Source: Fontibacillus panacisegetis (GTDB lineage: Bacteria > Bacillota > Bacilli > Paenibacillales > Paenibacillaceae). Taken from it: a stretch of DNA of 64,000 nucleotides. This document shows, in pieces, positions 1,164 through 21,753 of this stretch; position 1 is the first letter of the stretch, and the number at the start of each line of letters is the position of its first letter. Where the stretch lies: assembly GCF_900102215.1 (NCBI RefSeq), contig NZ_FNBG01000014.1:1-64000 (forward strand), in the 5' to 3' direction. The translations under genes were made by a program, and so were the position numbers. Under the pieces are notes generated by a model. The model was not told the DNA's origin. It did no database searches and saw nothing but the letters and a program-made list of their open reading frames with translations.

Positions 1164-2990
1164 ATGATAAGAGGAGTCGGAATATACCAAAAGTATTTTA
1201 AAAATAATTCATTCATGAAGATTATTCTGTTTTTCTCTATGATAACCATCCTGACGATCATTTCTTTTTCATACCTAATGTTTAAGTTTATGTCGGAGTC
1301 TGCAGTAGATCGACAGATGGATGTACAGAAGAGCGCGATGGAGAGTGTCAGCAACTACATTGGAGGCAAGTATGAATCTGTGCAGCGAATGATGAGGGAG
1401 GTATACCGGGATAGCGAATTAGCATCCAATACGGCCTACTTTATGGAGCATCCTTACCAGGATTACGTGAATTACCGGCTGGATCGCTTCTTTACGGATA
1501 CAGGCTCTACTACGGATACGGTGCAGTATTTCAGAAATCAGATCGAAGATGACCAGGATATCGTTAGTTTGATGCTGTATAGTGCTGATATGCAGCAGTT
1601 ATACGTATACAACAGCATCAAGCAGTTTAAAATCGTATCCACGAATGCTTCACGCTCCTTTGTACCGGATGCGATGTATCTGGAGGAAGGTATTGATGTA
1701 ACGCTTCCGAATATCTGGATTCGAAAAACAATAGGCATGCCGGATACTCCGGTGTATTCTGTACGTGTTCCGATGAATAATAACCAATCTTTGCGTAACA
1801 TGGGCCAGCTTCTCGTCTATTTCGATACCGAAAAAATACATGAAAGCCTGGAAAAATTCGAAGAAAATCTGAAGGGGCAAATCGTGGTGCTTTCCAGCGA
1901 TGGGGATGTTATGTTTGACAGCGCGGGAATTTATTACGGAAGTAAATATCCCTATTTTAATGAGATCAACTCTGTCTATGATGACGGGATCGTCGGACAG
2001 GATTTGATTGTGACAAAGCTAACGCAGAGTCATGGAGGGTTTACCGTATTGAGCACGGTTCCTGAGGATGAGCTCGCCAAGACGTATCGAGGATTACGCA
2101 ATACCATTATTACGATTAGTTCGATCTGCATCTTGTTTGCCATCATCATTTCATCCTTGTTTATCGGCAATTTTGCTAAACGTACGTACGGTATTGTTCG
2201 AATTACAAGAAAAGTGAGGAATGGTGATTTGACGGTTCGTATTGAGGATAACAAGGATGATGAGTTAGGTCTCATCTCCAAAAGCTTTAATAGCGTGCTC
2301 GACAATTTGAACCTGTATATCGATAAGGTGTATAAAGCTGAAATCAAGCAGAAGCAGGCCGAGCTAGCGGCATTGGAATCAAGAGTAAACCCCCATTTTT
2401 TGTATAATACGCTGGAAGTGATACGTATGAGAGCGGTTTCACAGGGGGCAAACGATGTCGGGGAAATGATCTACAGCTTATCCATGCTGTTCAAAGGCTA
2501 TGTGCAGCAAAAACAAAATTATACGCTAAGGGATGAGCTTGAGGCGTGCAGATTGTATCTTGAGCTGTTCAGAATACGCTATAAAGACAGACTTTCCTAT
2601 GAAATAAACTGTGATAAGGTATTGGAGTCTATTCCGGTAATGAAGATGTCCTTGCAGCCGATTATTGAAAATTATATTATTCACGGTCTCCGTACAGAAC
2701 GAACTGATAATGTGGTTTTCATTTCAATCGTTCGCAAGGATATGGGAATGGTTCAAGCCAGAATTGAGGATAACGGCCGCGGCATCTCCTCAGAAAGATT
2801 GAGTGAAATAACTCGAAATATGAGTAATCCGGATACCTATTCAGAGTCGTTTGGACTGCGAAGCATTCATGAAAGATTAAAGCTACTGTATGGAAACCCT
2901 TATGGCATCGAACTGCATAGTGAGGAGGGGGAGGGAACGACCGTGATCGTTTCATTTCCCGAACAGGAGGAGGCAAACATCATTGTATAA
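1164..2990 (+). CDS. YesM-type sensor histidine kinase
   Basis: A 608-residue membrane kinase. A first transmembrane helix at about residues 18-42 is followed by an extracytoplasmic sensor of about 250 residues. A second helix lies at about 305-330, then a HAMP region (KVRNGDLTVRIEDN), the His_kinase (PF06580) box VNPHFLYNTLE with phospho-acceptor His411, and an HATPase domain with DNGRGIS. This is the YesM family, which senses extracellular carbohydrate or binding-protein signals and phosphorylates a YesN-type regulator, here the next gene (8-base overlap). I chose ATG at 1164 because AGAGGGGG lies 6 bases upstream; a GTG at 1158 would add two residues but leaves no spacer. By context it should control the downstream importer and glycosidases. 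Confidence 0.92.
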   Translation: MIRGVGIYQKYFKNNSFMKIILFFSMITILTIISFSYLMFKFMSESAVDRQMDVQKSAMESVSNYIGGKYESVQRMMREVYRDSELASNTAYFMEHPYQDYVNYRLDRFFTDTGSTTDTVQYFRNQIEDDQDIVSLMLYSADMQQLYVYNSIKQFKIVSTNASRSFVPDAMYLEEGIDVTLPNIWIRKTIGMPDTPVYSVRVPMNNNQSLRNMGQLLVYFDTEKIHESLEKFEENLKGQIVVLSSDGDVMFDSAGIYYGSKYPYFNEINSVYDDGIVGQDLIVTKLTQSHGGFTVLSTVPEDELAKTYRGLRNTIITISSICILFAIIISSLFIGNFAKRTYGIVRITRKVRNGDLTVRIEDNKDDELGLISKSFNSVLDNLNLYIDKVYKAEIKQKQAELAALESRVNPHFLYNTLEVIRMRAVSQGANDVGEMIYSLSMLFKGYVQQKQNYTLRDELEACRLYLELFRIRYKDRLSYEINCDKVLESIPVMKMSLQPIIENYIIHGLRTERTDNVVFISIVRKDMGMVQARIEDNGRGISSERLSEITRNMSNPDTYSESFGLRSIHERLKLLYGNPYGIELHSEEGEGTTVIVSFPEQEEANIIV

Positions 2991-4506
2991 GGTTTTTATC
3001 GTAGACGATGAGCCGTTTATTATCGAAGGGCTGTACGATATAGTCGATTGGTCTATGCTAGGGATGGAGATCGTCGGTTATGCAGAGAATGGCTGTGCAG
3101 CATTGGAAGCGTTGACAGAGACTCCAACTGACATTTTGATTACCGATATTTCAATGCCGAAGATGAACGGGCTGGAGCTGATTCGTCAGATTCGCCAGCT
3201 CAAGCCGGAATTAAAGGTCATTGTGCTTAGCGGCTACGATGAATTTGCTTATTTGAAGGAAGGCATGACTTTAGGAATTGAGAACTATTTACTGAAGCCG
3301 ATTAATCTTGAGGAATTTCAGGCGACTTTGAATGCGGTTCATGAGAAGCTCAATGCTTCCCGGAATGACGAAGCCCTAAGCGAGTACAGCATCCGGATAT
3401 TGCGAGATAACGTGATGTATAGATGGGTATGCAATCAAATCGAAGAGCGGGAGTTTCGGGAAAGAATCGATTTGCTCGGCCTGCAGATCGATAAGCCGTA
3501 TGTGCTGATTACACTTTGCCGTGTTAGAACAGCTTCTTCGGATTTGTTAGATTTAATTGAACAAAGTGTAGATAGTATTGAAAGACTATCAACTGTTATT
3601 ACATTTCAAGACACTGACGGTGATATTATACTGCTGTTCAATTTTGATGATCCCGGCGAAGGCAGACTGGAGTCCGCCGAGTTGATTGATGAGCTGTCAG
3701 AGAAGCTGCGTGATTTAGATGTCCAGCTATCTGAGGGTAGTGTCGAAAGCTTGGAGGATGGGGCTCATCTCAGCTATGAAAATGCAAAAAAGGCGCAGGA
3801 GTATTTTTTGATCTATTCAGAGCAAACCACAATCAGATTTGATGAGCTCAAAAGCCCGGCTACATCAAGCCAACTGGCAGCAATTGACTGGGATGAAAGT
3901 ACAAGACTGCTGCTGGCAAGAGATAGAGAGGAGCTGTTTGCTCTTATTGATCAACAATTTGCCTATATGGGTGAAATAGCCGGTGTTACACCACTGTTCC
4001 TGCAGGATATGGCTTTGGAATGGCTCGTACGCTTCAAGATGCAATTGCAGAAGATTCGATATGCTGAGGAGCCTCGTCTAATTAAAGAGGGGTATGACCA
4101 AATAAAGTCAGCGGGGACCATGGAAGAACTGGTCATTATCGTGAAAAAAATGGCTGAAATGGCAATCGACGTGTTAAACGGCGATGTCAAGAGTCCGATC
4201 GTTCAGCAGGTGCTATCCTATATTCGTGTAGCATACAATCAGGATTTATCGCTTAAAACGCTGGGGAATACCTACAATATTCATCCCGTATATCTTGGGC
4301 AGCTTTTTCATAAGGAAGTTGGAGAGTCCTTCACAGAATACATCAACAGATACCGAATTGAGAAAGCTAAGGAGCTTCTTAAGACAACACATCAGAAGGT
4401 ACATGAGATTGCCCGCAACGTAGGATATTGGGAGACAGGGTATTTTTACAAGCAATTCAAAAAATATGTCGGGGTATCTCCTAAGGAATACAAAGGGCTA
4501 GGCTAG
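2983..4506 (+). CDS. YesN-type AraC-family response regulator
   Basis: A 507-residue protein. Its N-terminal receiver domain has acidic pocket VDDE (8-10), phospho-acceptor Asp55 (ILITDISMPK) and the conserved Lys105 in LLKPI. A linker of roughly 280 residues follows, then a C-terminal AraC/XylS double helix-turn-helix (about residues 405-505, ending in NVGYWETGYFYKQFKKYVGVSPKEY). The start is TTG at 2983, overlapping the kinase stop by 8 bases, with GAGGAGG 10 bases upstream. It is the expected partner of the YesM-type kinase and the likely activator of the transporter and hydrolase genes that follow. Confidence 0.92.
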   Translation: MYKVFIVDDEPFIIEGLYDIVDWSMLGMEIVGYAENGCAALEALTETPTDILITDISMPKMNGLELIRQIRQLKPELKVIVLSGYDEFAYLKEGMTLGIENYLLKPINLEEFQATLNAVHEKLNASRNDEALSEYSIRILRDNVMYRWVCNQIEEREFRERIDLLGLQIDKPYVLITLCRVRTASSDLLDLIEQSVDSIERLSTVITFQDTDGDIILLFNFDDPGEGRLESAELIDELSEKLRDLDVQLSEGSVESLEDGAHLSYENAKKAQEYFLIYSEQTTIRFDELKSPATSSQLAAIDWDESTRLLLARDREELFALIDQQFAYMGEIAGVTPLFLQDMALEWLVRFKMQLQKIRYAEEPRLIKEGYDQIKSAGTMEELVIIVKKMAEMAIDVLNGDVKSPIVQQVLSYIRVAYNQDLSLKTLGNTYNIHPVYLGQLFHKEVGESFTEYINRYRIEKAKELLKTTHQKVHEIARNVGYWETGYFYKQFKKYVGVSPKEYKGLG

Positions 4507-4571
4507 TGGTATATCCACAGCCGGCTCTTTTCTTTATTTTGAACACTGTTTTATTTAGTTTATCTTCTTTT

Positions 4572-4585
4572 TGAAAATGCTTACA
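4572..4585 (+). promoter_or_regulatory. Candidate cre (CcpA) site upstream of the sugar importer
   Basis: TGAAAATGCTTACA matches the catabolite-responsive element consensus TGWAANCGNTNWCA at all but one fixed position: the central CG is TG. It lies 55 bases upstream of the binding-protein ATG, where a promoter-proximal cre would be expected. Functional assignment is inferred. Confidence 0.4.
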
Positions 4586-4640
4586 TCAAATAAAGTAAAG
4601 ATAGTTACATGAGCTTCTACTTCATAAGGGAGGTTTACCA

Positions 4641-6146
4641 ATGAGTAAGACAAAGAAAAGTATTTGTTTACTGTTGGCATCTTTGATGGCGTTTTCATTG
4701 CTATTAAGTGCTTGCGGTGGAGGTAACAAAGCAGAAAATGCGAATTCTGGCAAGACGCAAAACACGGAACCAACGAAGAGCTCGGAAAAACCGGTGGAGC
4801 TGATCTGGTACACGATCGGAGCACCGCAAAAGGACTTGTCCCGAGTCATGGAGGAAGTTAACAAGTACACCAAGGAAAAAATTAATGCCACAGTCGACAT
4901 GAAAATGATTGACTTTGGTGACTACAGCCAAAAAATGCAGGTAATGGTCGCTTCCGGCGAGCCGATGGATATCTTGTTCACATGCTCATGGGCGTTCGAT
5001 TACGTGCAAAATGCTCGTAAAGGCGCGTTTATGGAATTAGATGATCTGCTGGATAAATACGGACAAGGCATCAAGGAAACTCTTGATCCAGCATTCCTGA
5101 AAGGCTCCAAGGTTGATGGACACAACTATGCAATACCTGCTAACAAAGAGCTTCCAGCTCAAGAAGTATGGCGTTTCAACAAGGAGCTTTTGGACAAGTA
5201 CAATCTGGATATGGCAAGCGCAACTACACTGGAAAGTCTTGAGCCATTGCTGAAGACAATCAAGGAAAACGAGCCTGACATTACGCCTTATGCTATGGTT
5301 AAGGATTTTATGCCGCTCATGCCGTTTGACTATGTAATTGAGAAAATGCCTATGGCTGTTTACTTGGATACGAAAGACTACAAAGTAGTCAACATTTTGG
5401 AAACTCCGGAAATCGTAGACACTTTGAAAACGGTTCGTAAATACTATCAAGCTGGTTATCTATCACCTGAAGTAGCTACTACAACTTCTGTAGACGATTT
5501 GTACAAATCAGGAAAATGGTTTATGGACCGTGCTGCAACACAACCATTTGCAGACAACCTGTGGTCAGCTAGCTACGGATATCCTGTAGTTTCAACAGCA
5601 GCAGGCGATCCGTACGTATATAACTGGTCTGTAATGGGCTCGATGCAAGCGATCTCCGCTAACTCCAAGTATCCTGAGAAAGCAATGGAATTCCTTAACC
5701 TGCTCAATACAGATCCAGTTCTTCGCAACATGATCGACTCAGGTATTGAAGGCGTTCACTATGAAAAAGTTAGCGACAACGTAGTCAAGAACCTTCCGGA
5801 CAGCAAGAACTACGATATGCCTACGTTCTCTCTTGGTAACATCATGATCAACTATCTGAATGAAGGCGACCCGGAAAACAAATGGGAAGAATTTAAGAAA
5901 TTCAATGCTTCAGGCATTAATTCTCCTCTTCTTGGCTTTAACTTTGATACATCCAAGATTACAAATGAAATCGCTGCGGTGCAAAACGTTAAAGAAGAGT
6001 TCTGGTCATCCTTGATGACAGGTACAGTTGATCCAGAGGAATATCTGCCAAAAGCTAATGAGAAATTCAAGGCTGCCGGACTGGATGCAATTATTGCAGA
6101 GGCGCAAAGACAAATCGATGAGTGGAGAGCAACAGTAAGCGAATAA
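4641..6146 (+). CDS. Sugar ABC transporter substrate-binding lipoprotein, DUF3502 type
   Basis: A 501-residue lipoprotein. The signal peptide ends in the lipobox LLLSAC (Cys at about residue 25), followed by a Gly/Asn/Lys-rich linker. The body is a family 1 solute-binding fold. The last 130 residues (LLGFNFDTSKITNE to QRQIDEW) match the DUF3502 domain of LplA/YtcQ-type proteins, which bind complex oligosaccharides for CUT1 importers. It is the first gene after the regulators and is followed by a stem-loop and two permease genes. No ATPase is encoded nearby, so a shared MsmX-type ATPase elsewhere is probably used. By context the ligand is a mannose- or GlcNAc-containing oligosaccharide; the sequence alone does not show this. 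Confidence 0.92.
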   Translation: MSKTKKSICLLLASLMAFSLLLSACGGGNKAENANSGKTQNTEPTKSSEKPVELIWYTIGAPQKDLSRVMEEVNKYTKEKINATVDMKMIDFGDYSQKMQVMVASGEPMDILFTCSWAFDYVQNARKGAFMELDDLLDKYGQGIKETLDPAFLKGSKVDGHNYAIPANKELPAQEVWRFNKELLDKYNLDMASATTLESLEPLLKTIKENEPDITPYAMVKDFMPLMPFDYVIEKMPMAVYLDTKDYKVVNILETPEIVDTLKTVRKYYQAGYLSPEVATTTSVDDLYKSGKWFMDRAATQPFADNLWSASYGYPVVSTAAGDPYVYNWSVMGSMQAISANSKYPEKAMEFLNLLNTDPVLRNMIDSGIEGVHYEKVSDNVVKNLPDSKNYDMPTFSLGNIMINYLNEGDPENKWEEFKKFNASGINSPLLGFNFDTSKITNEIAAVQNVKEEFWSSLMTGTVDPEEYLPKANEKFKAAGLDAIIAEAQRQIDEWRATVSE

Positions 6147-6166
6147 TTTCGCCATATTGAACTAGG

Positions 6167-6206: not shown

Positions 6207-6240
6207 CGCCAGCAATGAATAACGATCAGGAGGGATACGC

Positions 6241-7179: not shown

Positions 7180-7202
7180 TCCAATGGAAGGAGTGAGTTT
7201 AT

Positions 7203-8117
7203 ATGTCTCGGAGAACTAAGCAACGTGATTTTCATCAACTGTCAAAAGTATGGAATATCATATTCAATTCAATAGCTGGGTTATTTGCCTTTCTCTGTGT
7301 ATTTCCATTCTTGTTTGTCGTGATCATTTCCTTCACAGATGAATCAGTTCTGGCCCGGAACGGCTATCGGTTAATCCCTGAAAAATGGAGCCTGGCAGCC
7401 TATCGTTACGTGTTCGAAACGGCCGACACCTTGCTTCAATCTTATGGAGTAACGATCTTTGTCACCATAGTAGGTACTATAGTCAGCCTTCTGATCATTT
7501 CTCTTTATGCCTATGCAGTTTCGCGAAAAAGCTTCAGATATCGTAATTTCTTTTCCTTTTTCGCCTTTTTTACCATGCTGTTTAATGGTGGACTTGTCCC
7601 GACGTATATTGTCGTAACGCAGTTATTGGGGCTGAAGGATAGCGTGTGGGCTCTGATTTTGCCAATGGCGGTTAACGCATTTTACATTATGATTTTACGG
7701 ACGTTTTATACGAGCAGTGTACCGGATGCAATTGTCGAATCAGGGAAAATCGACGGTGCCGGAGAGTTCAGAATTTTCCTCAAGCTGGTGCTCCCGCTAT
7801 CCCTTCCAGGGCTCGCAACCATTGCCTTGTTCAGTACTCTAGGCTACTGGAACGACTGGTTTAATGCTCTGTTGTACATCGATAGTCCGAATCTTGTACC
7901 GCTGCAATCCATGCTGATGCGGATCGAGACAAGCATGCAGTTCATTTTGCAAAACTCGCAAAACAGCTCGCTAAGTCTGGAGGCGCTCCGTTCTATGCCG
8001 CAGGATACTTCGCGGATGGCGATGGTTGTGCTTGCAACAGGACCGATTATTTTTGCTTATCCGTTTTTCCAACGTTATTTCATTCAAGGTCTTACTGTAG
8101 GGGCAGTTAAAGAATAG
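7203..8117 (+). CDS. Sugar ABC transporter permease, LplC/YtcP type
   Basis: A 304-residue polytopic membrane protein, the second permease subunit of the importer. The EAA-loop motif is VESGKIDGAGEFRIFLKLVLPLSLP. The C-terminus has the characteristic YPFFQRYFIQGLTVGAVKE ending of CarB/LplC/YtcP-type CUT1 permeases. The start ATG has AAGGAG upstream. The GH3 gene follows 52 bases later, so transport and degradation are probably co-transcribed. Confidence 0.93.
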   Translation: MSRRTKQRDFHQLSKVWNIIFNSIAGLFAFLCVFPFLFVVIISFTDESVLARNGYRLIPEKWSLAAYRYVFETADTLLQSYGVTIFVTIVGTIVSLLIISLYAYAVSRKSFRYRNFFSFFAFFTMLFNGGLVPTYIVVTQLLGLKDSVWALILPMAVNAFYIMILRTFYTSSVPDAIVESGKIDGAGEFRIFLKLVLPLSLPGLATIALFSTLGYWNDWFNALLYIDSPNLVPLQSMLMRIETSMQFILQNSQNSSLSLEALRSMPQDTSRMAMVVLATGPIIFAYPFFQRYFIQGLTVGAVKE

Positions 8118-8169: not shown

Positions 8170-10467
8170 ATGATCTATAAGGACCATACCAGACCAATTA
8201 ATGAAAGAGTCGAGCATTTGCTTGGGCTTATGACAATGGAAGAAAAGGTCGGCCAGCTGGTGCAGCCTTTTGGCTGGCAGGCCTATACACATATAGACGG
8301 AAAGATTGAGCTTACAGATTCCTTTAAAAAGCAAATAGAAAGCACGGGCGTCGGGTCCCTGTACGGCGCATTGCGCGCCGACCCGTGGACAGGAGTTACC
8401 CTGGAGAAGGGGCTGTCACCGAGACAGGGAGCGGAGGCCGTCAATGAAATTCAAAGATATGCCATCGAAAATTCCCGACTGGGCATCCCGATCCTGATCG
8501 GAGAGGAATGCTCTCATGGACATATGGCCATCGGGGCAACTGTATTTCCGGTTCCATTAACCCTTGGCAGCACATGGAATGTGGATCTGTATCGGGAAAT
8601 GTGCCGGGCCGTAGCCAAAGAAACAAGAAGCCAGGGTGGTGCAGCAACGTATTCACCCGTTCTGGACGTCGTTCGCGATCCTCGCTGGGGACGGACGGAG
8701 GAGTGCTTTGGAGAAGATCCTTACTTGATCAGCGAAATGGCGGTAGCCTCTGTTGAGGGTCTGCAGGGCGATTCCTTGGACAGTCCGGACAGCGTTGTTG
8801 CGACATTGAAGCATTTTGTAGCCTACGGAAGCTCTGAAGGCGGAAGAAATGCAGGTCCAGCACATATGGGCCGACGCGAGCTGCTTGAGGTGGATATGCT
8901 GCCGTTCAAAAAGGCGGTTCAGGCAGGGGCGCAATCGATCATGCCGGCTTATAACGAGATTGATGGCGTTCCATGCACGACCAACAAGGAGTTGCTGCAG
9001 GATATCCTCCGCGATGATTGGGGCTTTGACGGCATGATCATAACAGATTGTGGCGCAATCGACATGCTGGCATCAGGCCATGATGTGGCTGAGGATGGAC
9101 TGGATGCTGCCGTGCAAGCCATTGAGGCAGGAATCGACATGGAAATGTCAGGTGAAATGTTCGGTAATTATTTGCTGATGGCCTTGCAATCCAATCGATT
9201 GAATGCTGAGGTTCTGGATGCGGCAGTACGCAGGGTGCTTGCCTTGAAGTTCAAGCTCGGATTATTCGAGTCACCTTATGGCGATCCGGATCGTGCCGAA
9301 GAGATTATCGCCAGCAAGGAGCATATATCATTAGCTCGTAAAATCGCAGGCGAAGGCATCGTTTTGTTGAAGAACGAAGGAGGACTGCTCCCGTTGTCCG
9401 ATGCTACAGGAACCATTGCTGTAATTGGACCTAACGCAGACGCGGGCTACAATCAGTTGGGCGATTACACGTCTCCGCAGCCGCCAGGCACGGTGGTGAC
9501 GGTGCTGGACGGCATTCGTGAAAAGCTGAAAGACGACAGCGGGCGTGTTCTGTATGCGCCGGGCTGCAGAATCAGAGGGGAATCGCGCGAGGGATTTGAG
9601 CTCGCCCTTTCCACAGCGGAGAAGGCCGATACCATCGTGATGGTAGTTGGAGGCTCCAGTGCGCGTGATTTCGGCGAAGGCAGCATTGACTTAAAGACAG
9701 GAGCCTCAAAGGTAACCGGACATTCGTGGAGTGATATGGACTGTGGCGAAGGCATCGATCGAATGTCATTGAGCCTGTCCGGTGTACAGCTTGAATTGCT
9801 GCAGGAAATCAGCAAGCTGGGAAAACAGCTTGTAGTTGTATATATTAACGGTCGTCCTATTGTCGAGCCATGGATCGATGAGCATGCGGACGCCATTGTG
9901 GAAGCATGGTATCCGGGTCAGGAGGGCGGCCATGCGGTAGCTGACATTTTGTTCGGTGATGTCAATCCATCCGGACGTTTGACGGTGTCCATTCCAAAGC
10001 ATGTCGGCCAATTGCCTGTGTATTATAACGGCAAACGCTCTCGCGGGAAGCGATATCTGGAGGATAATTCCCAGCCACGCTATCCGTTCGGATTTGGACT
10101 CAGCTATACGGAATTTGCTTATTCCAACCTCAAGCTTGAATCACAGGAGCTCGCTGTTAACGGAAGCACTGTAGCCGCTGTTGAAGTAACTAACGTCGGC
10201 AAACGGGCAGGTGCGGAGGTCGTGCAGCTTTATATCTCCGATAAGGTCAGCACTGTAACACGTCCGGCCAAGGAATTGAAAGGGTTCCGCAAAATTTATT
10301 TGGAGCCGGGTGAAACTCAAACCGTGAAATTTACGATCGGTGCGGAGGAGCTTCAATATATCGGTCGGGATATGAAAACCGTTGTGGAGCCTGGAGAATT
10401 TCAGGTATGCATCGGCAGACATGTAAATGATACTTTAAGCGCCGCATTGCAGGTGCGAAAGGAGTAG
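8170..10467 (+). CDS. Glycoside hydrolase family 3 (beta-glucosidase type)
   Basis: A 765-residue cytoplasmic enzyme without signal peptide. The order is an N-terminal (beta/alpha)8 barrel (about 10-330) with the family motif ATLKHFVAYG, the catalytic nucleophile Asp293 in GMIITDCGAIDML, the alpha/beta sandwich (about 380-600) and a C-terminal fibronectin-III-like domain (about 650-760). This architecture is typical of beta-glucosidases and beta-xylosidases. It is not that of the two-domain GH3 N-acetylglucosaminidases (NagZ), so its part in a mannose/GlcNAc pathway is unclear: it may act on a beta-glucosyl or other terminal sugar. The following GH38 start lies 3 bases after its stop, with the ribosome binding site AAAGGAG inside this gene. 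Confidence 0.92.
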   Translation: MIYKDHTRPINERVEHLLGLMTMEEKVGQLVQPFGWQAYTHIDGKIELTDSFKKQIESTGVGSLYGALRADPWTGVTLEKGLSPRQGAEAVNEIQRYAIENSRLGIPILIGEECSHGHMAIGATVFPVPLTLGSTWNVDLYREMCRAVAKETRSQGGAATYSPVLDVVRDPRWGRTEECFGEDPYLISEMAVASVEGLQGDSLDSPDSVVATLKHFVAYGSSEGGRNAGPAHMGRRELLEVDMLPFKKAVQAGAQSIMPAYNEIDGVPCTTNKELLQDILRDDWGFDGMIITDCGAIDMLASGHDVAEDGLDAAVQAIEAGIDMEMSGEMFGNYLLMALQSNRLNAEVLDAAVRRVLALKFKLGLFESPYGDPDRAEEIIASKEHISLARKIAGEGIVLLKNEGGLLPLSDATGTIAVIGPNADAGYNQLGDYTSPQPPGTVVTVLDGIREKLKDDSGRVLYAPGCRIRGESREGFELALSTAEKADTIVMVVGGSSARDFGEGSIDLKTGASKVTGHSWSDMDCGEGIDRMSLSLSGVQLELLQEISKLGKQLVVVYINGRPIVEPWIDEHADAIVEAWYPGQEGGHAVADILFGDVNPSGRLTVSIPKHVGQLPVYYNGKRSRGKRYLEDNSQPRYPFGFGLSYTEFAYSNLKLESQELAVNGSTVAAVEVTNVGKRAGAEVVQLYISDKVSTVTRPAKELKGFRKIYLEPGETQTVKFTIGAEELQYIGRDMKTVVEPGEFQVCIGRHVNDTLSAALQVRKE

Positions 10468-10470
10468 AGT

Positions 10471-13400: not shown

Positions 13401-13617
13401 AGTCAAGCCTGCCGAGGAAGGCAGCGGAGTTATTCTTCGCCTTTATGAGTCCGCAGGGGGACGGGAAAAAGTTGCTTTGGAATGGCCGGAGCAGGTTCAA
13501 AGCATATATATTTCCAATGCTCTTGAAAAGGAATTTGAGCAGCTCCCGCATAATGAAGGTCAGTTTGAGCTTGATTTTGCACCATATGAAATTAAGACGA
13601 TCAGAATCAACTACTAA
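10471..13617 (+). CDS. Alpha-mannosidase, GH38, Ams1/MAN2C1 type
   Basis: A 1048-residue cytoplasmic enzyme. An N-terminal beta-rich domain of about 220 residues precedes the GH38 catalytic domain, which opens with the zinc motif GQSHIDIAWLWP (His239, Asp241). The nucleophile is Asp351 in EWLPDTFGYCASLPQIL. Next come the alpha-mannosidase middle three-helix domain (LLNQFHDIIPGSAITEAY) and C-terminal beta domains to the end. Length and N-terminal domain place it with yeast Ams1 and human MAN2C1, which remove alpha-1,2-, 1,3- and 1,6-mannose from free oligomannosides in the cytosol. No signal peptide. It differs clearly from the shorter GH38 at 17087-19831, so the two probably split linkage specificities. 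Confidence 0.95.
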   Translation: MERMQRFIRELLEASWLEEQEVRSWEITSATYKLPGEYENVAPYSEGLNFERFPSTQGTTYFFRTQLSVPSSWQEGHVGLIFKSGGEGLLRVNGKSYQGLDRNHTFVTLREEKSAPLELEIELFDPVPEPVDPLNQQAVIQPPITAVQCKLVLVNRPVQSLMYTATIIRDSVVLLPEQDFRRTRLIEALYRAMDEFVGLSKTEVREGVSASAIEERLMQRVQEIGGNAEGIMHMVGQSHIDIAWLWPARETVRKTSRTFSTVDALMSEYPDFKYAQSQPLLFEYLKNNDPELYERVKARISEGRWELVGGMWIEPDLNLPNGESLMRQMLYGQSFYRQEFGKTSDIEWLPDTFGYCASLPQILKHGGIRFFMTTKLGWNDTNVFPYDLFHWVGIDGTPMLSYLNHGVNENTLPKDIHDHWQSFREKASHPEQMLLYGHGDGGGGVTREMLEYIDRSELMVGQPSSVYSTAAQFFDGIAGHRPQIPEWRGDLYLELHRGTYTTHGRNKRNNRKAEIMYREAELWNTLAASFMKEEKRRDSLQSLHDGWKLILLNQFHDIIPGSAITEAYETSEKEYKDIFSFGNASLMTGLTTLSERITMTGEGTPYVVYNSLGWSRDVVVSINDSGFNRRGTKVYDSEGNRLEADLIAGAGHENSDHVWIRVPNVPAFGYKTIWFRDDEASVAPTSGEVNSSCGTGQWNGDVWETEYYSIRFNEKGEIISLLDKAVNREIVQPGEAANRFHFFHDRPILWDAWDIDSRYEEQPAGEAKLVERTVLLQGDVMDVLRFRWSLSQSDIEQDIILYHHDRRIDFKTRVNWNEAHKLLKVGFPIDVVADKATYEIPYGALERPTHRNTSWEQAQYEVCGHRFVDVSEHGYGVSLLNDCKYGYDVQGSTIRLSLLRAPKWPDKTADLGAHEFIYSLYPHAGSWQEAHIVRKAAELNHEAPVIGCAGQTEAAVGSLPNEGSLLGFNGQHVMLDTVKPAEEGSGVILRLYESAGGREKVALEWPEQVQSIYISNALEKEFEQLPHNEGQFELDFAPYEIKTIRINY

Positions 13618-13646: not shown

Positions 13647-14966
13647 TTGGAACAATTTAGACTCCCGAAAATAAACATGCCGAAGCTGGAATTGCCGAAT
13701 GCGGTGCAGGATGTGCTGCGGGAAGCGGATGAGAAGCTTGCACATCGTCCAAAGCTGCTGAAGCAGTTCAAAAACTGCTTTCCCAATACGCTGGAGACGA
13801 CGACCAAGCTAATGGAGGACGGAACGACCTTTGTCATTACAGGAGATATTCCGGCCTCCTGGCTGCGGGATTCGGTAGAGCAGGTGATCCACTACGTGCC
13901 TATAGCGAAAGAAGACGCGGATTTGCAGCGGATTATTTCCGGACTGATCAAGCGTCATATCCAATACATCCACATTGACCCGTATGCCAATGCATTCAAT
14001 GAATCGGCCAACGATTGGCACTGGAATACGACGGATGAGACAGACATGTCGCCATGGGTATGGGAACGGAAATTCGAAATCGATTCCCTTTGCTTTGTAG
14101 TCCGGCTCGCATACACGTACTGGAAAGAAACCGGGCGTGCTGATATTTTTGACGCCGGATTTAAATCCGCCATGCGGAAAATTTATGATGTGTTCCGTAC
14201 CGAGCAGCGGCATTTTGAACAGTCGCCATATCGGTTTACACGCAATAATGGCATCATTGAGGATTCGCTGCGAAATGCCGGAATGGGCATGCCGGTCAAT
14301 TACACCGGAATGATCTGGTCAGGCTTCCGTTCCAGCGACGATGCCTGTGATTTCCATTACAACATTCCGGGTAATATGTTTGCGGTCGTGGCGCTTCGCC
14401 AAATGCAGGAATTCGCGGAATGGGTATTCCGTGACATGGGTTTTCTGGCACAGCTTCAGACACTGGAGCTTGAAATAGACTACGGGATCAAGCTGTATGG
14501 CATTTACCGTCATCCTGAATTTGGACCCATTTATGCTTACGAGACGGACGGGTTTGGCAACTATTGTCTGATGGATGATGCTGGGACTCCAGGATTGATG
14601 TCGATTCCTTATCTAGGCTATGTCACTGCTGACGATCCGATTTACCAAAATACGCGGCGTTTTGCGCTTAGCAAGGAAAATCCGTTCTACTTTGAAGGGA
14701 AAGCAGCCAAAGGAATAGGCAGCCCGCATACACCGAAGGATTACATTTGGCATATGGCGTTATCGATGCAGGGGATCACGGCTCAGACTGCCGAGGAGAA
14801 GCTGGAGATGATTGCGATACTGGAAGCGACGGATGCTGACACTGGTTATATGCATGAAGGCTTCCATTCGGACGATCCAACGATCTTTACCCGCAGCTGG
14901 TTCGCTTGGTCGAACAGCCTGTTTTCACAGCTAGTTTACCGTGCGATGAAGGAAGACATTCTGTAA
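13647..14966 (+). CDS. Exo-alpha-1,6-mannosidase, GH125
   Basis: A 439-residue protein of usual GH125 length (formerly DUF1237). The (alpha/alpha)6 barrel carries the family motif PASWLRDSVEQV (Asp75), then HWNTTDETDMSPWVWERKFE and SGFRSSDDAC. Characterised bacterial members are inverting exo-alpha-1,6-mannosidases that act on N-glycan core or branch alpha-1,6-mannose. The start is TTG at 13647 with AAAGGAG nine bases upstream. No signal peptide, so it works in the cytoplasm on imported glycan. A GH125 next to GH38 and GH20 recalls streptococcal N-glycan loci. Confidence 0.93.
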   Translation: MEQFRLPKINMPKLELPNAVQDVLREADEKLAHRPKLLKQFKNCFPNTLETTTKLMEDGTTFVITGDIPASWLRDSVEQVIHYVPIAKEDADLQRIISGLIKRHIQYIHIDPYANAFNESANDWHWNTTDETDMSPWVWERKFEIDSLCFVVRLAYTYWKETGRADIFDAGFKSAMRKIYDVFRTEQRHFEQSPYRFTRNNGIIEDSLRNAGMGMPVNYTGMIWSGFRSSDDACDFHYNIPGNMFAVVALRQMQEFAEWVFRDMGFLAQLQTLELEIDYGIKLYGIYRHPEFGPIYAYETDGFGNYCLMDDAGTPGLMSIPYLGYVTADDPIYQNTRRFALSKENPFYFEGKAAKGIGSPHTPKDYIWHMALSMQGITAQTAEEKLEMIAILEATDADTGYMHEGFHSDDPTIFTRSWFAWSNSLFSQLVYRAMKEDIL

Positions 14967-15014
14967 GTCGTATTGACCTTTAAAATATAAGTGTCGTAAA
15001 AAGGAGATTTGAAA

Positions 15015-16007
15015 ATGAGCAGAATTATTGGAGAAAACCTGAACCATATTCCCTGGCAGGATAAACCTGAAGGCTATAATGCACCCGTTTGGAGATATTC
15101 ACACAATCCGATTATTAAGCGTGACGCAATTCCAAGCTCCAACAGTATATTTAATTCGGCTGTAATTCCTTTTGAAGACGGGTTCGCCGGTGTATTCCGC
15201 TGCGACTCCAAATCCGTCAGCATGGACATTTTCGCCGGCTTCAGCAAGGATGGTGTGAACTGGGAAATCAATCACGAGCCCATCGTATTCCAGGGAGATG
15301 AGGAAGTCATTAAACGGGAATACCGTTATGATCCGCGGGTCTGCAAAATTGGAGATCGTTATTACATCTCATGGTGCAACGGCTATCATGGCCCAACGAT
15401 TGGACTTGCTTATACATTTGATTTTCAGACTTTCCATCAAATTGAGAATGCCTTCTTGCCGTATAACCGAAACGGAGTGCTGTTCCCGCGCAAGATTGGC
15501 GACAATTATGCAATGGTTAGCCGTCCTAGCGATACAGGCCATACTCCTTTCGGTGACATATTTTACAGCGAAAGTCCTGACCTCACCTTCTGGGGGAAAC
15601 ACCGCTATGTGATGGGTACGATCGATGGAGATGCCTCTGCATGGCAGTCCAAAAAAATCGGACCGGGTCCGATTCCGATCGAAACCGACAAGGGCTGGCT
15701 GCTGATTTACCATGGCGTAATCAATACTTGCAACGGCTTTGTCTATCGCATGGGCTGTGCGCTTCTGGATATTGATCAGCCTTGGAAAGTAAAAGCGCGG
15801 TCACGCAATTATATTTTGGGGCCTGAAACCTTGTATGAATGCGTCGGAGATGTACCGAATGTGACTTTCCCGTGTGCGGCTTTGACCGATGCTGCAACCG
15901 GACGTATTGCTATTTATTATGGATGCGCGGATACGGTAACGGGATTGGCATTTACTACTGTTGACGAACTGCTCGATTATATGGAGAAGTACCCTTTGGA
16001 AGGGTAA
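15015..16007 (+). CDS. Beta-mannoside phosphorylase, GH130
   Basis: A 330-residue five-bladed propeller protein of the GH130 family. The general-acid region reads [17 protein letters not shown] (Asp106). Further phosphate- and substrate-site motifs lie in [12 protein letters not shown] and [18 protein letters not shown]130 enzymes phosphorolyse beta-1,4- (or beta-1,2-) mannosides to mannose-1-phosphate. With GH38, GH125 and GH20 around it, the likely substrate is Man-beta-1,4-GlcNAc from the N-glycan core, but a beta-1,2-mannobiose or mannosyl-glucose activity cannot be excluded by eye. I chose ATG 15015 because AAGGAG (15001-15006) is then correctly spaced; the in-frame TTG at 15009 is too close. 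Confidence 0.9.
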
Positions 16008-17027: not shown

Positions 17028-17086
17028 AAAAAGATTCCCAGACATGGGACATCATTATTAGTTGTAATTAGAAGGGAATGATCAAT

Positions 17087-19831
17087 ATGAACAAACAAAA
17101 AAGAGCCCATATCATCTCCCATACGCATTGGGACAGGGAATGGTATTTACCCTATGAGAAGCATCATGTAAGGCTTGTCGCTTTGGTCGATTCTCTCCTG
17201 GACAAGCTGGATAAGGGCAGTGATTTCAGAAGCTTCTATTTGGATGGTCAAACGATTATTCTGGAGGATTATCTTCAGGTCCGTCCAGAGAACAAGGAAC
17301 GGCTGGAGAAGCATATTCGCGAAGGTAGAATTCTGATAGGCCCATGGTATATTTTGCAGGATGCTTTTTTGACAAGCGGTGAGGCGAATGTGCGCAACAT
17401 GCAGATCGGTCACCGTGATGCCAAGCAGTACGGAGAGCCGGCCAAGATCGGATACTTCCCGGACACCTTCGGCTTAGTCGGACAGACTCCGCAGTTGATG
17501 CAGCAGTCCGGCATTAGCAATGCCTTTTTTGGTCGCGGTGTAAAACCGACGGGCTTTAACAATACAGTATCTGATGGAGGCTATGAGTCTTCGTTCTCCG
17601 AACTGATCTGGGAAGGTCCCGATGGCTCGAAAGTGCTGGGTATATTGTTCGCTAACTGGTATTCCAATGGCAATGAGGTGCCGGTAGACGAAGCTGAAGC
17701 TAAGACGTTTTGGGACAAAAAGCTGGCGGATGCAGAAAAATATGCGGCCACGGGAGAACTCCTCTTTATGAACGGCTGCGACCACCAGCCAATTCAGCTT
17801 GATCTGCCTGAGGCGATCGAGACAGCTTCCAGATTGTACTCGGATACGGAGTTTATCCACTCCAGTCTGCCGGAGTATTTACAGTCTCTGGAAGGGGCAC
17901 TGGACCGCGATTTGTCCTCGGTGAAGGGCGAATTGCGCAGTCAGCGGACGGACGGCTGGGGGACCCTGGTCAACACAGCCTCGGCTCGCGTGTATTTGAA
18001 GCAGATGAATCAGGAAGGACAAGCGCTGCTTGAAAAAGTAGCCGAGCCGCTGGCTTCGTTTGCTCATCTTTTAGGGCAGTCCTATCCTCATCATCTATTT
18101 ACTTACGCCTGGAAGACCTTGATGCAGAACCACCCGCACGACAGCATCTGTGGCTGCAGTGTGGATGAAGTGCACCGGGAGATGGTGACCCGCTTTGATA
18201 AAAGCCGTCATGTAGCGGAAGCAATTATAGATGAGAGCAAGCAGGTGATCGCTGAGAAGGTAGATACTTCTGTCTTCTGCGAATATGGGGAGGACCCGCT
18301 GCCGTTGATTGCGATGAATACTACCGGATGGGCTCGCTCAGGGGTGCTGTCGGTGGAGCTGGATGCAGCACGTCTGTATTTGCGGGAAGGCTTTACGCTT
18401 GAAGAAACCTCGCGCCGGATGAAGGAGACGGATTTATCAGGGCGGGTTCTGGTTGACGAGCAGGGGAACGCAGTTCCTTGCAGTGTAGAAGATTTAGGCT
18501 TGCTGTTTGGCTATGATTTGCCTGAGGACAAGTTCCGTCAGCCTTACATGTGCCGCAGGGTGCGGATTACGTTCCAAGCGAAGGAGGTTCCGGCTCTGGG
18601 ACTGCGTGCATACGCTTGGGTACGCCGTGAGGAGCAGCAACAGGAGGCAGCTTCTCTACTTACGGGACAGCGTGTGATGGAGAATGAGGCACTTAAAGTG
18701 GAGATTGCGGAGGACGGCTCTTTTGCACTAATTCACAAAAAAACAGGCCAAACGTATCGTGATCTTGGGGTTTATGAGGATACGGGAGATATCGGCAATG
18801 AATACATGTACAGACAGCCTGAAGGAGAAGAAGCTCTAACTACAAAAGGGTTGGCTGCGCAAATCCGCGTGTTGGAGGATACGCCTTATCGTGCATCTGT
18901 AGAAATCGTGCACGAATTGGAAATTCCCGTCTCCGGGGATGAAAAGCTGGATCAGGAGCAGCGGGAATTGGTGTATTATCCGGAGCGTAAGGCGCAGCGC
19001 AGCGACAGCCTCGTACCGCTTCGAATATGTACCGTGATTACGCTTGAAGCGGATGCAAAAGGTGTTTTTGTAGAGACGAAGCTTAACAATCAGGCGAAGG
19101 ATCACAGACTTAGAGCATTGTTTCCGACTGATCTGGACGCTGCCACACATCTTGCAGATTCGATGTTTGAAATCGCGGAAAGAGATAACGTTCCGGCATC
19201 TGAATGGGAAAATCCGAGCAATACGCAGCACCAGCAAGCTTTTGTTGACATTAAGGATGCTCACTCAGGACTGACGATCGCGAATCTCGGCTTGAATGAA
19301 TACGAAGTGCTTCGGGATGGGCGCAACACCATTGCGATTACGCTGCTTCGAGCTGTAGGGGAATTAGGCGACTGGGGATTGTTCCCTACACCGGAAGCGC
19401 AATGCCTGGGTGAGCATACCTTCCGGATGGAGCTGATTCCATATTGCGCAGACGATGAGGCAAACGGGGCATTTGAAGCTTATACCGAGGCTTATCAATT
19501 CCAGATTCCATGGACAGTGTGTCAGACCGGAGTACATTCCGGTCAGATTGCTCCTATTTACACTCCTCTGCGCTGGGAAAGCGCGGAGCTTGCCTTCTCC
19601 TCAATGAAGATGAATGAGGATACCGATAATTTGCTGCTTCGCTGGTTCAATATGAGCGGAAGTAACACTCAGCTTATCTTTAGCACAAAAATTTCTGTCG
19701 AGAGCATGTACAAGACTACTATCATGGAGGAACTAGCACCGCCGATCGCGAGAACTGCGGTTGGTGAATTGAATGTAGCGGTTGGTCCATGCGAGATCGT
19801 CACGATCGGAATGAAGCCGATATTGCCATGA
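17087..19831 (+). CDS. Alpha-mannosidase, GH38, MngB/streptococcal type
   Basis: A 914-residue cytoplasmic enzyme that begins almost directly with the catalytic domain. The zinc motif is HIISHTHWDREW (His14, Asp16) and the nucleophile is Asp126 in GYFPDTFGLVGQ. The zinc-ligand HPHDSICGCSVDEVH motif follows at about 347-361, then C-terminal beta domains. This is the short bacterial class that includes E. coli MngB and the streptococcal alpha-1,3-mannosidase SpGH38. I chose ATG 17087 because GAAGGGA sits nine bases before it; the in-frame ATG at 17078 overlaps that ribosome binding site. The next gene begins inside its 3' end region. Together with the Ams1-type enzyme it should cover several alpha-mannosyl linkages. 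Confidence 0.94.
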   Translation: MNKQKRAHIISHTHWDREWYLPYEKHHVRLVALVDSLLDKLDKGSDFRSFYLDGQTIILEDYLQVRPENKERLEKHIREGRILIGPWYILQDAFLTSGEANVRNMQIGHRDAKQYGEPAKIGYFPDTFGLVGQTPQLMQQSGISNAFFGRGVKPTGFNNTVSDGGYESSFSELIWEGPDGSKVLGILFANWYSNGNEVPVDEAEAKTFWDKKLADAEKYAATGELLFMNGCDHQPIQLDLPEAIETASRLYSDTEFIHSSLPEYLQSLEGALDRDLSSVKGELRSQRTDGWGTLVNTASARVYLKQMNQEGQALLEKVAEPLASFAHLLGQSYPHHLFTYAWKTLMQNHPHDSICGCSVDEVHREMVTRFDKSRHVAEAIIDESKQVIAEKVDTSVFCEYGEDPLPLIAMNTTGWARSGVLSVELDAARLYLREGFTLEETSRRMKETDLSGRVLVDEQGNAVPCSVEDLGLLFGYDLPEDKFRQPYMCRRVRITFQAKEVPALGLRAYAWVRREEQQQEAASLLTGQRVMENEALKVEIAEDGSFALIHKKTGQTYRDLGVYEDTGDIGNEYMYRQPEGEEALTTKGLAAQIRVLEDTPYRASVEIVHELEIPVSGDEKLDQEQRELVYYPERKAQRSDSLVPLRICTVITLEADAKGVFVETKLNNQAKDHRLRALFPTDLDAATHLADSMFEIAERDNVPASEWENPSNTQHQQAFVDIKDAHSGLTIANLGLNEYEVLRDGRNTIAITLLRAVGELGDWGLFPTPEAQCLGEHTFRMELIPYCADDEANGAFEAYTEAYQFQIPWTVCQTGVHSGQIAPIYTPLRWESAELAFSSMKMNEDTDNLLLRWFNMSGSNTQLIFSTKISVESMYKTTIMEELAPPIARTAVGELNVAVGPCEIVTIGMKPILP

Positions 19832-19845
19832 ACGGGGGTGAAGCT

Positions 19846-21753
19846 ATGAAGCTACTATTTTCCGGGCTATCTAAGGACACGCTGCGTGGTGTGGCAGAGC
19901 TTGGTGGAATGCTGGGCATAGAAACGCAGGCGGAAGACGCAATATCGGTTGAGGTTGTTCAGGCAAATGGGCCGCTGAAGGTGACTCGAAACGGCAACCG
20001 AGGGTTTATCCAATATGAGAAGAAGATACATTTTTACCGCGGGCTTGGCTTGTTTGTGGAACACGCACGTACTATGGAAGCCTTCACGATAAATGAACAG
20101 CCAAGATTCGATTACAACGGCACGATGCTCGACGTATCCCGCAACGGGGTGTTGCGAGTGGACACGATCAAGCAGTTCATCCGTTACATGGCCTTGATGG
20201 GGCTCAACGGTCTTATGCTCTATACCGAGGACACCTATGAAATTGAAGGTTTGCCGTATTTCGGATATATGCGTGGCCGCTACTCGAAAGAGGAGCTTCG
20301 TGCCTGTGATGACTACGCTGATATGTTCGGGATCGAAATGATTCCCTGTATCCAGACCTTGGGGCATCTGCATCATGCTTTAAAATGGAACTATGCCGAA
20401 CCGATCAGGGATCATCATGATATTTTGCTTCCGGATGAGCCTAAAACCTATGAATTCATTGAGCAGATGATCAGCACCGCTGCATCTACCTTCCGCTCGA
20501 AACGGATTCATATCGGCATGGACGAAGCTTTTCAGGTAGGGCTTGGTCGCTATTTACGCGAGCATGGCTACCGCAATCGTTTTGATATTATGAATGAGCA
20601 TGTAGGAAAGGTTCTGGAAATCACCAGCAAGTATGGTCTTCGTCCGATGATCTGGAGCGATATGTATTTCAATTTGCTCGCCAATGATAATCAGGGACAG
20701 CTGTATAACATGAATGCCGATTTTTCTGCCGAGAATATGTCCAAAATTCCTGAGGGCGTTCAATTCGTGTTCTGGGATTATGGCAGAGGTGAAGAGGAAG
20801 GTTATGAGCTCGTCTTTGATATGCATAAAAAATTCGGGTCAATGCCGATTTTTGCCGGCGGGATTCACATGTGGAACTCTATCGCTCCGAACTATGGAAA
20901 GACGTGGAAGACGAGTCATCCGGCTCTTCGGGCAGCCAAGAAAAAGGGGCTTAGGGAGGTATTCGCTACCGCTTGGGGCGATAATGGTACTGAAACGAAT
21001 CATTATGTGATTCTGGCCGGCCTGCAGCTGTTTGCGGAGCATGGCTATGGCGATGAGGTCGATGATGAGACGCTTGCCAAGCGATTGAAGGCCTGTACCG
21101 GAATTGATCTTTTTGAACCCCTAGTGTCTCTGAAATATATGGATGAGGTTCCGGGTGTCGATGAAGGCAATCATTGGATGGCTAACCCTTCCAAATTTTT
21201 GCTGTGGCAGGATTTAATGGTTGGTATTTTTGATAAGCATATTGAAGCGGATACCGAAGAAGTACTGCCTGGGTATTACAGGGATATGGAAGTAAAATGG
21301 CGCAATGTCAAGGAGTGTATGCCTGCTCCGTTTCATGCGCTGTTCGAAACCTATGAGAAGCTGGCCGCAGTGCTGTCGATGAAGACTGCTTTAGGAGTGC
21401 GTATCACGAGATACTATAAGGAGCAGCGGAAGGAAGAGCTGGCGAAGATTGCGAGCAGCGAGCTGCCGGAGCTTTATTCACGGGTGGAAAGCCTGCGGCT
21501 TGCCCATCGACGAATGTGGATGCTGACCTATAAACCGTTTGGCTGGGAAACGCTCGACATTCGCTACGGCGGGTTGAAGTCTCGTATTCAATCGGCAGGA
21601 GACAGATTGTGTGATTATCTCGATGGACGTGTAGATGTGCTGGAGGAGCTTGAAGCCGAGCGGCTCGTTTTTGATCAGAATGGTACACCAACGGCTCCGA
21701 TGAATGTGACAGGGCTGTATCAGTTGATTGTAACAGCAACCTCGCTGACGTAA
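19846..21753 (+). CDS. Beta-N-acetylhexosaminidase, GH20, GcnA type
   Basis: A 635-residue protein. An N-terminal GH20b-like domain is followed by the barrel starting at MLDVSRNGVLRVD. The catalytic Asp226-Glu227 pair sits in IHIGMDEAF, where Asp stabilises the substrate acetamido group and Glu is the acid. The absence of a signal peptide and the C-terminal helical domain resemble the intracellular streptococcal GcnA/GH20C enzymes, which remove terminal GlcNAc or GalNAc. I chose ATG 19846 because GGGGGTG lies just upstream; the frame stays open to 19789 but that would overlap the GH38 gene by 43 bases. It is the last gene of the locus and is followed by a terminator. Confidence 0.9.
   Translation: MKLLFSGLSKDTLRGVAELGGMLGIETQAEDAISVEVVQANGPLKVTRNGNRGFIQYEKKIHFYRGLGLFVEHARTMEAFTINEQPRFDYNGTMLDVSRNGVLRVDTIKQFIRYMALMGLNGLMLYTEDTYEIEGLPYFGYMRGRYSKEELRACDDYADMFGIEMIPCIQTLGHLHHALKWNYAEPIRDHHDILLPDEPKTYEFIEQMISTAASTFRSKRIHIGMDEAFQVGLGRYLREHGYRNRFDIMNEHVGKVLEITSKYGLRPMIWSDMYFNLLANDNQGQLYNMNADFSAENMSKIPEGVQFVFWDYGRGEEEGYELVFDMHKKFGSMPIFAGGIHMWNSIAPNYGKTWKTSHPALRAAKKKGLREVFATAWGDNGTETNHYVILAGLQLFAEHGYGDEVDDETLAKRLKACTGIDLFEPLVSLKYMDEVPGVDEGNHWMANPSKFLLWQDLMVGIFDKHIEADTEEVLPGYYRDMEVKWRNVKECMPAPFHALFETYEKLAAVLSMKTALGVRITRYYKEQRKEELAKIASSELPELYSRVESLRLAHRRMWMLTYKPFGWETLDIRYGGLKSRIQSAGDRLCDYLDGRVDVLEELEAERLVFDQNGTPTAPMNVTGLYQLIVTATSLT

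What the first reader, a model, noticed from the sequence alone, without database searches (positions are those of the whole stretch)
1164..21753. Intracellular N-glycan-type mannoside utilisation locus
One plus-strand locus combines a YesM/YesN two-component system, an Lpl-type importer, GH3, two GH38, GH125, GH130, an APH-fold kinase and GH20. GH38, GH125 and GH20 occur together in streptococcal N-glycan loci, and GH130 releases mannose-1-phosphate from Man-beta-1,4-GlcNAc in Bacteroides. Joining both schemes with a kinase in one Gram-positive cluster would give a full cytoplasmic route for imported core glycans. No GH18/GH85 endoglycosidase and no GH92 is present, so release from protein must happen elsewhere or the cell scavenges free oligosaccharides. 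The families are seen; the substrate is inferred.
Basis: partly seen in the sequence, partly recalled or inferred. Interest (0 to 1): 0.8.

Follow-up and report, generated by a model that had tools for sequence, protein, structure and literature searches.

The report
Paenibacillus N-glycan feeding regulon
This gene cluster most likely lets a soil-type bacterium import and eat the sugar trees cut from eukaryotic glycoproteins, and it appears to share its switch with a distant gene for a cell-surface enzyme that cuts those trees off.

Summary
In detail: window 1158-21753 encodes, on one strand, YesM, YesN, a DUF3502 binding protein, two permeases, GH3, GH38, GH125, GH130, an APH-fold kinase, a second GH38 and GH20C. 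N-glycan use is well supported. The binding protein's best solved match is pneumococcal NgtS. The GH130 matches UhgbMP best, while the genome's other GH130_2 matches TM1225. Relatives carry GH85 endoglycosidases beside this importer or a paralogue.

The missing endoglycosidase exists: an SLH-anchored GH85 on another contig. Its promoter carries the element found before the binding-protein gene; in 5.26 Mb these are the only two matches with at most 2 mismatches. A matrix trained on 23 relatives' importer promoters finds it before 8 of 10 own-type GH85 genes of relatives; permuted matrices find almost nothing. A second GH85 type lacks it.

The kinase is not core (0 of 25 relatives have it there); GH20C is accessory. 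GH3 is core and most likely removes plant-type beta-1,2-xylose; that is inferred. New variant of a known kind, unusually well connected.

The parts
1158..2990 (+). YesM-type sensor histidine kinase
   Evidence: Pfam His_kinase, HATPase_c, HAMP; syntenic in relatives
2983..4506 (+). YesN-type response regulator (receiver + AraC HTH), proposed regulator of the regulon
   Evidence: Pfam Response_reg, HTH_18; syntenic
4531..4600 (+). Conserved promoter element of the regulon (TCTTTATTTTGAAC ... CTTCTTTTTGAAAATGCTTACAT)
   Evidence: Conserved in 23 relatives; pattern search of own genome; matrix scans and column-permuted control
4641..6146 (+). Lipoprotein solute-binding protein, DUF3502 type, NgtS-like
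   Evidence: Best PDB matches 5swa/5swb, 5mlt, 5suo; only DUF3502 match found in the genome
6241..7179 (+). ABC permease 1
   Evidence: Pfam BPD_transp_1
7203..8117 (+). ABC permease 2
   Evidence: Pfam BPD_transp_1
8170..10467 (+). GH3, three-domain type, proposed beta-1,2-xylosidase
   Evidence: Pfam; best PDB match beta-xylosidase 7zb3; present in 23 of 25 syntenic stretches
10471..13617 (+). GH38a alpha-mannosidase, Ams1-like long type
   Evidence: Pfam; PDB 7vqo, 6lz1, 7ufs
13647..14966 (+). GH125 exo-alpha-1,6-mannosidase
   Evidence: Pfam 515 bits; PDB 2nvp/6rqk
15009..16007 (+). GH130_2 phosphorylase, proposed Man-beta-1,4-GlcNAc phosphorylase
   Evidence: Best PDB match UhgbMP 4udg, 514 bits; contrast with paralogue on contig C44
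16050..17027 (+). APH-fold kinase, local addition; substrate unknown
   Evidence: Pfam APH; not in place in relatives
17078..19831 (+). GH38b, streptococcal-type alpha-mannosidase
   Evidence: PDB 3lvt/5kbp and 2wyh; that 2wyh is streptococcal is recalled
19789..21753 (+). GH20C exo-beta-N-acetylhexosaminidase, accessory (true start may be about 57 bp downstream)
   Evidence: Pfam Glyco_H_20C_C; PDB 5a6b, 2epk

Best explanation
A substrate-induced N-glycan utilisation regulon of Paenibacillus. A secreted, SLH-anchored GH85 endoglycosidase (unlinked gene, contig C35) cuts N-glycans between the two core GlcNAc residues. The released ManxGlcNAc is captured by the NgtS-like lipoprotein and imported by the two permeases, presumably with a shared ATPase. 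In the cytoplasm GH38b (alpha-1,3), GH38a (broad) and GH125 (alpha-1,6) remove the alpha-mannose arms; GH3 removes a beta-linked decoration, most likely the core beta-1,2-xylose of plant-type glycans; GH20C removes antennary GlcNAc when present. GH130 then phosphorolyses Man-beta-1,4-GlcNAc to mannose-1-phosphate and GlcNAc, and GlcNAc enters the NagA route. YesM senses the glycan and YesN switches on the importer operon and the distant GH85 through one promoter element. Shown by computation: gene content, synteny, the shared element, family placement. Inferred: substrates, enzyme linkages, that YesN binds the element, the GH3 and kinase roles.
For: NgtS is the top solved match of the binding protein (278.9 bits), and NgtS binds Man5GlcNAc and Man1GlcNAc (PMC5215778, passages and section 10). 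GH130: UhgbMP 514 bits, RaMP2 475, TM1225 422; the C44 paralogue: TM1225 504, RaMP2 405, UhgbMP 394. One GH85 in the genome, with N-terminal signal (by eye) and three SLH repeats. Promoter element: 0 mismatches before the binding-protein gene, 2 before GH85, no other match with at most 2 in 5.26 Mb; a matrix trained without the window ranks these two first in 159 kb of own-genome stretches (64.9 and 30.3 bits, next 12.8); in 37 loci, most of them fetched for GH85, 13 hits exceed 12 bits, at binding-protein or GH85 promoters, against 2 in all of 40 column-permuted matrices. Neighbourhoods: L099 has nagB, nagA and GH85 directly upstream of YesM; L133/L134 has the orthologous importer divergent from GH85, with GH3 and GH38a following; L127/L126 has GH3-GH38a-GH85-importer-YesM/YesN; a paralogous importer stands with GH85 in L097, L098, L110, L111, L112 and L131, with YesM and YesN also seen in L097, L098, L110 and L131. 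NagA is in the genome.
Against: GH85 at E below 1e-40 is in only 14 of 25 locus-bearing genus relatives against 3 of 10 others, weak co-occurrence; 11 locus-bearing relatives must use another release enzyme or free glycans. The element is not before every GH85: two of ten own-type genes (L117, L121) and all genes of the second type (L097, L098, L110-L114, L131) and of more divergent types (L130, L132, L133) stay below 12 bits. NgtS aromatic positions are kept as aromatic residues, but so they are in three distant binding proteins. NCBIfam places neither GH3 nor GH130 above any equivalog cut-off. No biochemistry exists, and no fold prediction could be made.
Confidence: 0.82

Rival explanations
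1. The regulon serves fungal mannoprotein N-glycans rather than plant or animal glycoproteins; the enzymes are the same and GH3 removes another sugar.
For: The core is shared by all eukaryotes; Paenibacillus meets fungi in soil (recalled). GH125 and GH38 also occur in yeast mannan systems (PMC10154615, passage).
Against: GH3 is in 23 of 25 stretches and is not named in the fungal mannan passage that I saw. No GH92 found in the genome. GH76 and GH99 were not searched.
Confidence: 0.25
2. The cell mainly scavenges free N-glycans, for example those shed in plant tissue, and GH85 is an occasional extra.
For: 11 of 25 locus-bearing genus relatives have no GH85 hit at E below 1e-40.
Against: The window genome's GH85 has the same promoter element, and so do 8 of 10 own-type GH85 genes of relatives.
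Confidence: 0.25
3. The locus is a beta-mannan or glucomannan locus, with GH130 acting on beta-1,4-mannooligosaccharides.
For: GH130_2 members act on both kinds of substrate (PMC8950772, passages).
Against: A separate locus on contig C44 has a TM1225-like GH130 and a second GH130; three alpha-mannosidases have no use on beta-mannan (inference); relatives link the importer to GH85.
Confidence: 0.03

Closest known systems
Streptococcus pneumoniae N-glycan system (TCS07 regulon: NgtS-NgtP1-NgtP2, EndoD GH85, StrH, GH20, ROK, GH38, GH125, GH92, GH29; PMC5215778, PMC7075642, passages)
   Same: Two-component control of a regulon with an unlinked GH85, NgtS-like importer, GH38, GH125, GH20C.
   Different: Here regulators, importer and enzymes are one cluster; GH130 handles Man-beta-1,4-GlcNAc, where the pneumococcal model stops; GH3 is added; GH92 and GH29 were not found in the genome; the GH85 is SLH-anchored.
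UhgbMP / BT1033 GH130 N-glycan phosphorylases of gut bacteria (PMC8950772, passages)
   Same: UhgbMP is the closest solved GH130; phosphorolysis of the core mannose.
   Different: Known context is Bacteroidota loci (GH18 and GH92 neighbours recalled); here an ABC importer locus of a Gram-positive.
Bacteroides plant N-glycan loci with a GH3 beta-1,2-xylosidase (B035DRAFT_00995; PMC9522356, passages)
   Same: A GH3 together with alpha-mannosidase and, in some loci, GH130; release of xylose follows alpha-1,3-mannose removal.
   Different: PNGase and GH92 there, GH85 and GH38 here; the two GH3 sequences could not be compared.
Bifidobacterium longum high-mannose N-glycan operon (three GH38 and a GH125; PMC10154615, passage)
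   Same: Several GH38 and a GH125 in one Gram-positive operon.
   Different: Man-beta-1,4-GlcNAc is left to GH5_18 there and no GH130 is involved (both recalled).

Membership tests
Pneumococcal-type N-glycan utilisation system | NgtS-like binding protein with two permeases | tested here: met
   Best PDB match is NgtS, 278.9 bits over residues 44-495
Pneumococcal-type N-glycan utilisation system | Secreted GH85 in the same regulon | tested here: met
   GH85 on C35 with shared promoter element; regulator binding itself not shown
Pneumococcal-type N-glycan utilisation system | GH38, GH125 and GH20C | tested here: met
Pneumococcal-type N-glycan utilisation system | GH92 and GH29 | tested here: not met
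   No PF07971 or PF01120 match in the genome; each search rings in 3 of 14 control genomes
GH130_2 N-glycan (UhgbMP) subgroup | Closer to UhgbMP than to mannan phosphorylases | tested here: met
   514 against 475 and 422 bits
GH130_2 N-glycan (UhgbMP) subgroup | Phosphorolysis of Man-beta-1,4-GlcNAc | not testable with these tools
   Needs purified enzyme
Beta-mannan GH130 locus | GH130 closest to a mannooligosaccharide phosphorylase | tested here: not met
   That type is on C44 of the same genome
Plant N-glycan beta-1,2-xylosidase (GH3) | Sequence kinship to B035DRAFT_00995 | not tested
   That sequence was not at hand; nearest solved chain is beta-xylosidase 7zb3
NagZ-type GH3 beta-N-acetylglucosaminidase | Match to the NagZ-type model | tested here: not met
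   PRK05337 model scores 57 against a cut-off of 207 bits; three-domain GH3 with Fn3-like domain

The most novel reading that the evidence does not exclude
A complete plant-type N-glycan feeding route in a soil Gram-positive: one YesN-controlled regulon couples a surface GH85 to an NgtS-like importer, an intracellular GH3 beta-1,2-xylosidase that works after alpha-1,3-mannose removal, and energy-saving phosphorolysis of the core mannose by GH130. [quoted passage not shown] A GH130-based variant of this route is common in Clostridia.
Probability: 0.4. Interest if true: 0.68.

Novelty: new variant of a known kind. Interest (0 to 1): 0.56.

Why it matters
N-glycan feeding has been worked out mostly in streptococci, bifidobacteria and Bacteroides. 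This predicts a full route in free-living Paenibacillus and, from the neighbourhoods, in many Clostridia, with the last step that the pneumococcal model leaves open (ManGlcNAc) done by a phosphorylase. The shared promoter element turns a loose guess about substrate into a regulon that can be tested with one reporter and one binding assay, and the GH3 could be a new source of plant N-glycan xylosidases.

Tried and rejected
Rejected: beta-mannan locus (C44 holds that type). Rejected: NagZ-like role of GH3. Not settled: the kinase. A peptide-pattern scan of genome contigs found no relative; homologues of 46-52% are in 3 of 39 other genus genomes, away from GH130; the best solved match has only 34 bits; structure prediction was off. 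Co-occurrence of GH85 with the locus among 35 genus genomes is weak (14 of 25 against 3 of 10 at E below 1e-40, where 20 of 35 pass the family cut-off if short weak hits are counted). The NgtS Trp386 and Trp81 positions are Phe in the window; all 25 binding proteins of at least 65% identity, window included, have Phe or Tyr and Phe or Trp there, but so have 3 of 3 distant ones, so no weight is given. PNGase F (PF09112) gave nothing, but no control genome rang either, so absence is not shown. Promoter and terminator consensus scans were at chance level. Of 20 GH130 loci (64-75%) drawn from the phylum, 19 show no GH38, GH125 or GH85 in the fetched stretch, several being cut by contig ends; one, L190 (75%), has GH125, GH38, GH85 and importer. 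So a GH130 at 64-69% identity alone says little.

That this locus was not found in print rests on open-access full-text searches only. Papers: of PMC10154615 I saw outline, abstract and passages; of PMC5215778 passages and section 10; of PMC7075642, PMC8950772, PMC9522356 and PMC4599007 passages; of all others the search listing.
Full report
What is there. The window lies on a 132 kb contig of a 5.26 Mb genome. From 1158 to 21753 twelve genes on the plus strand form one cluster, listed under parts with the promoter element.

The cluster is conserved. A GH130 of 87-91% identity occurs in 24 of 35 genus genomes, and a copy split into two frames (86 and 91%) in one more, G030. In the 25 stretches fetched around it the order YesM-YesN-SBP-P1-P2-GH3-GH38a-GH125-GH130-GH38b recurs: GH125 25, GH3 23, binding protein 23, GH38a 22, GH38b 21 of 25 (L044 and L049 are cut by contig ends). 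The kinase is in place in 0 of 25 and GH20C in 1 of 25 (L046). GH20C lies some 7-8 kb downstream of GH130 in three others, L104, L210 and L218.

The importer points to N-glycans. The binding protein is the only DUF3502 match found in the genome, and its best solved matches are 5swa/5swb, 5mlt and 5suo. 5SUO, 5SWA and 5SWB are NgtS of S. pneumoniae, free or with Man1GlcNAc and Man5GlcNAc (PMC5215778, passages and section 10); what 5mlt is I did not check. The family has few solved members, so this alone is a lead.

GH130 placement. The window protein scores 514 bits to UhgbMP, 475 to RaMP2 and 422 to TM1225. The paralogue on contig C44, with a further GH130 some 7 kb away, scores 504 to TM1225, 405 to RaMP2 and 394 to UhgbMP. 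[quoted passage not shown] The genome therefore seems to keep a separate enzyme for beta-mannan.

The endoglycosidase is on another contig. A GH85 search of the whole genome finds one gene on C35, an open frame of 1962 codons with an N-terminal signal (by eye), GH85, LRR, F5/8 type C, Ig-like and three SLH stretches. An N-Q-E motif is present where GH85 enzymes have their catalytic Asn and Glu (recalled).

One promoter element joins the two. Alignment of the regions before the binding-protein gene in 23 relatives and the window shows a conserved block of about 60 bases. The pattern CTTCTWTTTGWAANNGCTTWCAT has, in the own genome, a perfect match at window 4564 and a two-mismatch match at C35:72225-72247, about 139 bp before the GH85 start; two further matches have three mismatches, and the backwards control has one match in all at up to three. 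A 53-column matrix trained on the 23 relatives without the window gives 64.9 and 30.3 bits for these two sites, next best 12.8 in 159,000 bases of own-genome stretches on both strands (two of these stretches overlap by 10 kb). In 558,734 bases of 37 loci, most of them fetched for GH85, 13 hits exceed 12 bits. They are the window's own site (L125); two binding-protein promoters (L133, and L099, which is the training site of L037); eight own-type GH85 promoters at 53-125 bp (L115, L116, L118, L119, L120, L122, L123, L124); one of these again in the overlapping stretch L129; and a weak site (13.3) at the GH85 of L099 that overlaps the called start. Own-type GH85 genes (65% or more to the window genome's) are ten in these loci; L117 and L121 stay below 12 bits, L117 with a shortened version. 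Against the reading: no hit lies before the second GH85 type (L097, L098, L110-L114, L131), several of which have their own YesM/YesN pair, nor before the divergent ones in L130, L132 and L133. Forty column-permuted matrices give 2 hits in all against 13.

Across 35 genus genomes the pattern with at most 2 mismatches has 43 matches against 3 for the backwards control: 29 precede the binding-protein gene, 2 a GH85, 1 a GH125 where the cluster is truncated (G001), 1 has none of the query genes near, and 10 were not examined.

Neighbourhood evidence. L099: an RpiR-type regulator, nagB and nagA (NagA 316 bits against a cut-off of 226, NagB 294 against 237) and GH85 stand directly upstream of YesM on the same strand. 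L133/L134: a genome without this GH130 keeps the orthologous importer and regulators (50-79%) with GH3 and GH38a following and a GH85 divergent from them. L127/L126: GH3, GH38a, GH85, importer, YesM, YesN in a row. L097 and L098: beside the main cluster, a second YesM-YesN-permeases-binding protein-GH85 set; the same set stands alone in L110 and, with YesM and YesN split, in L131; in L112 YesN and in L111 neither regulator is seen before the stretch ends.

Against. GH85 at E below 1e-40 is in 14 of 25 locus-bearing and 3 of 10 other genus genomes. All 3 of the latter have the importer with the element, but 11 locus-bearing relatives lack a GH85 at that level and must rely on something else.

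GH3. It is as constant as the importer. Its best solved match is a beta-xylosidase (7zb3, 595 bits; best glucosidase 521), though NCBIfam models for xylosidase and glucosidase score alike and all below cut-off. In Bacteroides massiliensis a GH3 removes the beta-1,2-xylose of plant N-glycans after the alpha-1,3-mannose is gone (PMC9522356, passages). I propose the same role here; it is inferred. GH3-like genes also stand near GH130 in 16 of 71 loci of other bacteria.

Beyond close Paenibacillus. Nine have GH130 of 87% or more, eight Paenibacillus and one Paenibacillaceae; all nine have GH125, GH3 and a permease, eight have GH38. Of the other 71 (66-82%; mostly Clostridia by title, three Paenibacillus), 33 have GH38, 5 GH125, 5 GH85, 30 a permease, 35 any of GH38/GH125/GH85 and 20 such an enzyme with a permease, at more than 60 bits in stretches of up to 21 kb, many cut short. 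Permease and GH3 hits are to broad families and may include unrelated neighbours.

How it works, and novelty. The mechanism is under Best explanation. It works like the pneumococcal system, whose model ends at ManGlcNAc (PMC7075642, passages), with a GH130 finishing step known from gut bacteria. It is a new variant of a known kind; the combination with a shared promoter element was not found in the open-access papers searched.

Noticed in passing
window 319-978 and 35764-39379: A PhoU gene sits directly before the cluster, and a phosphate-binding-protein-like gene with an ABC ATPase (Pst-like by family and order; the genes between were not checked) lies 35 kb away; normally these are neighbours (recalled).
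   Followed up: no
L059 (G030), 6097-14286: GH3, GH38a and GH130 of this relative are each split into two frames, from decay or sequencing errors; described only.
   Followed up: no
L101 4387-10135 and L102 3871-9618: In two relatives without GH38b the place after GH130 holds a response regulator, a histidine kinase and a large GH20 (Pfam on L101, with F5/8 and laminin-G-like domains; L102 by size and order).
   Followed up: partly
L101 10180-13384, L103, L104, L105: Two xylose-isomerase-like TIM-barrel genes and a GFO/IDH/MocA oxidoreductase (Pfam on L101; the others by size and order) recur beyond the cluster in several relatives, possibly a neighbour operon.
   Followed up: partly
window 16050-17027: The APH-fold kinase has no relative by peptide-pattern scan of the species-genome collection and homologues at E up to 1e-30 in only 3 of 39 other genus genomes; its substrate is open.
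   Followed up: partly
window 53940-55946: A sulfatase-family protein of 668 aa, possibly an LTA-synthase-like enzyme (guess).
   Followed up: no
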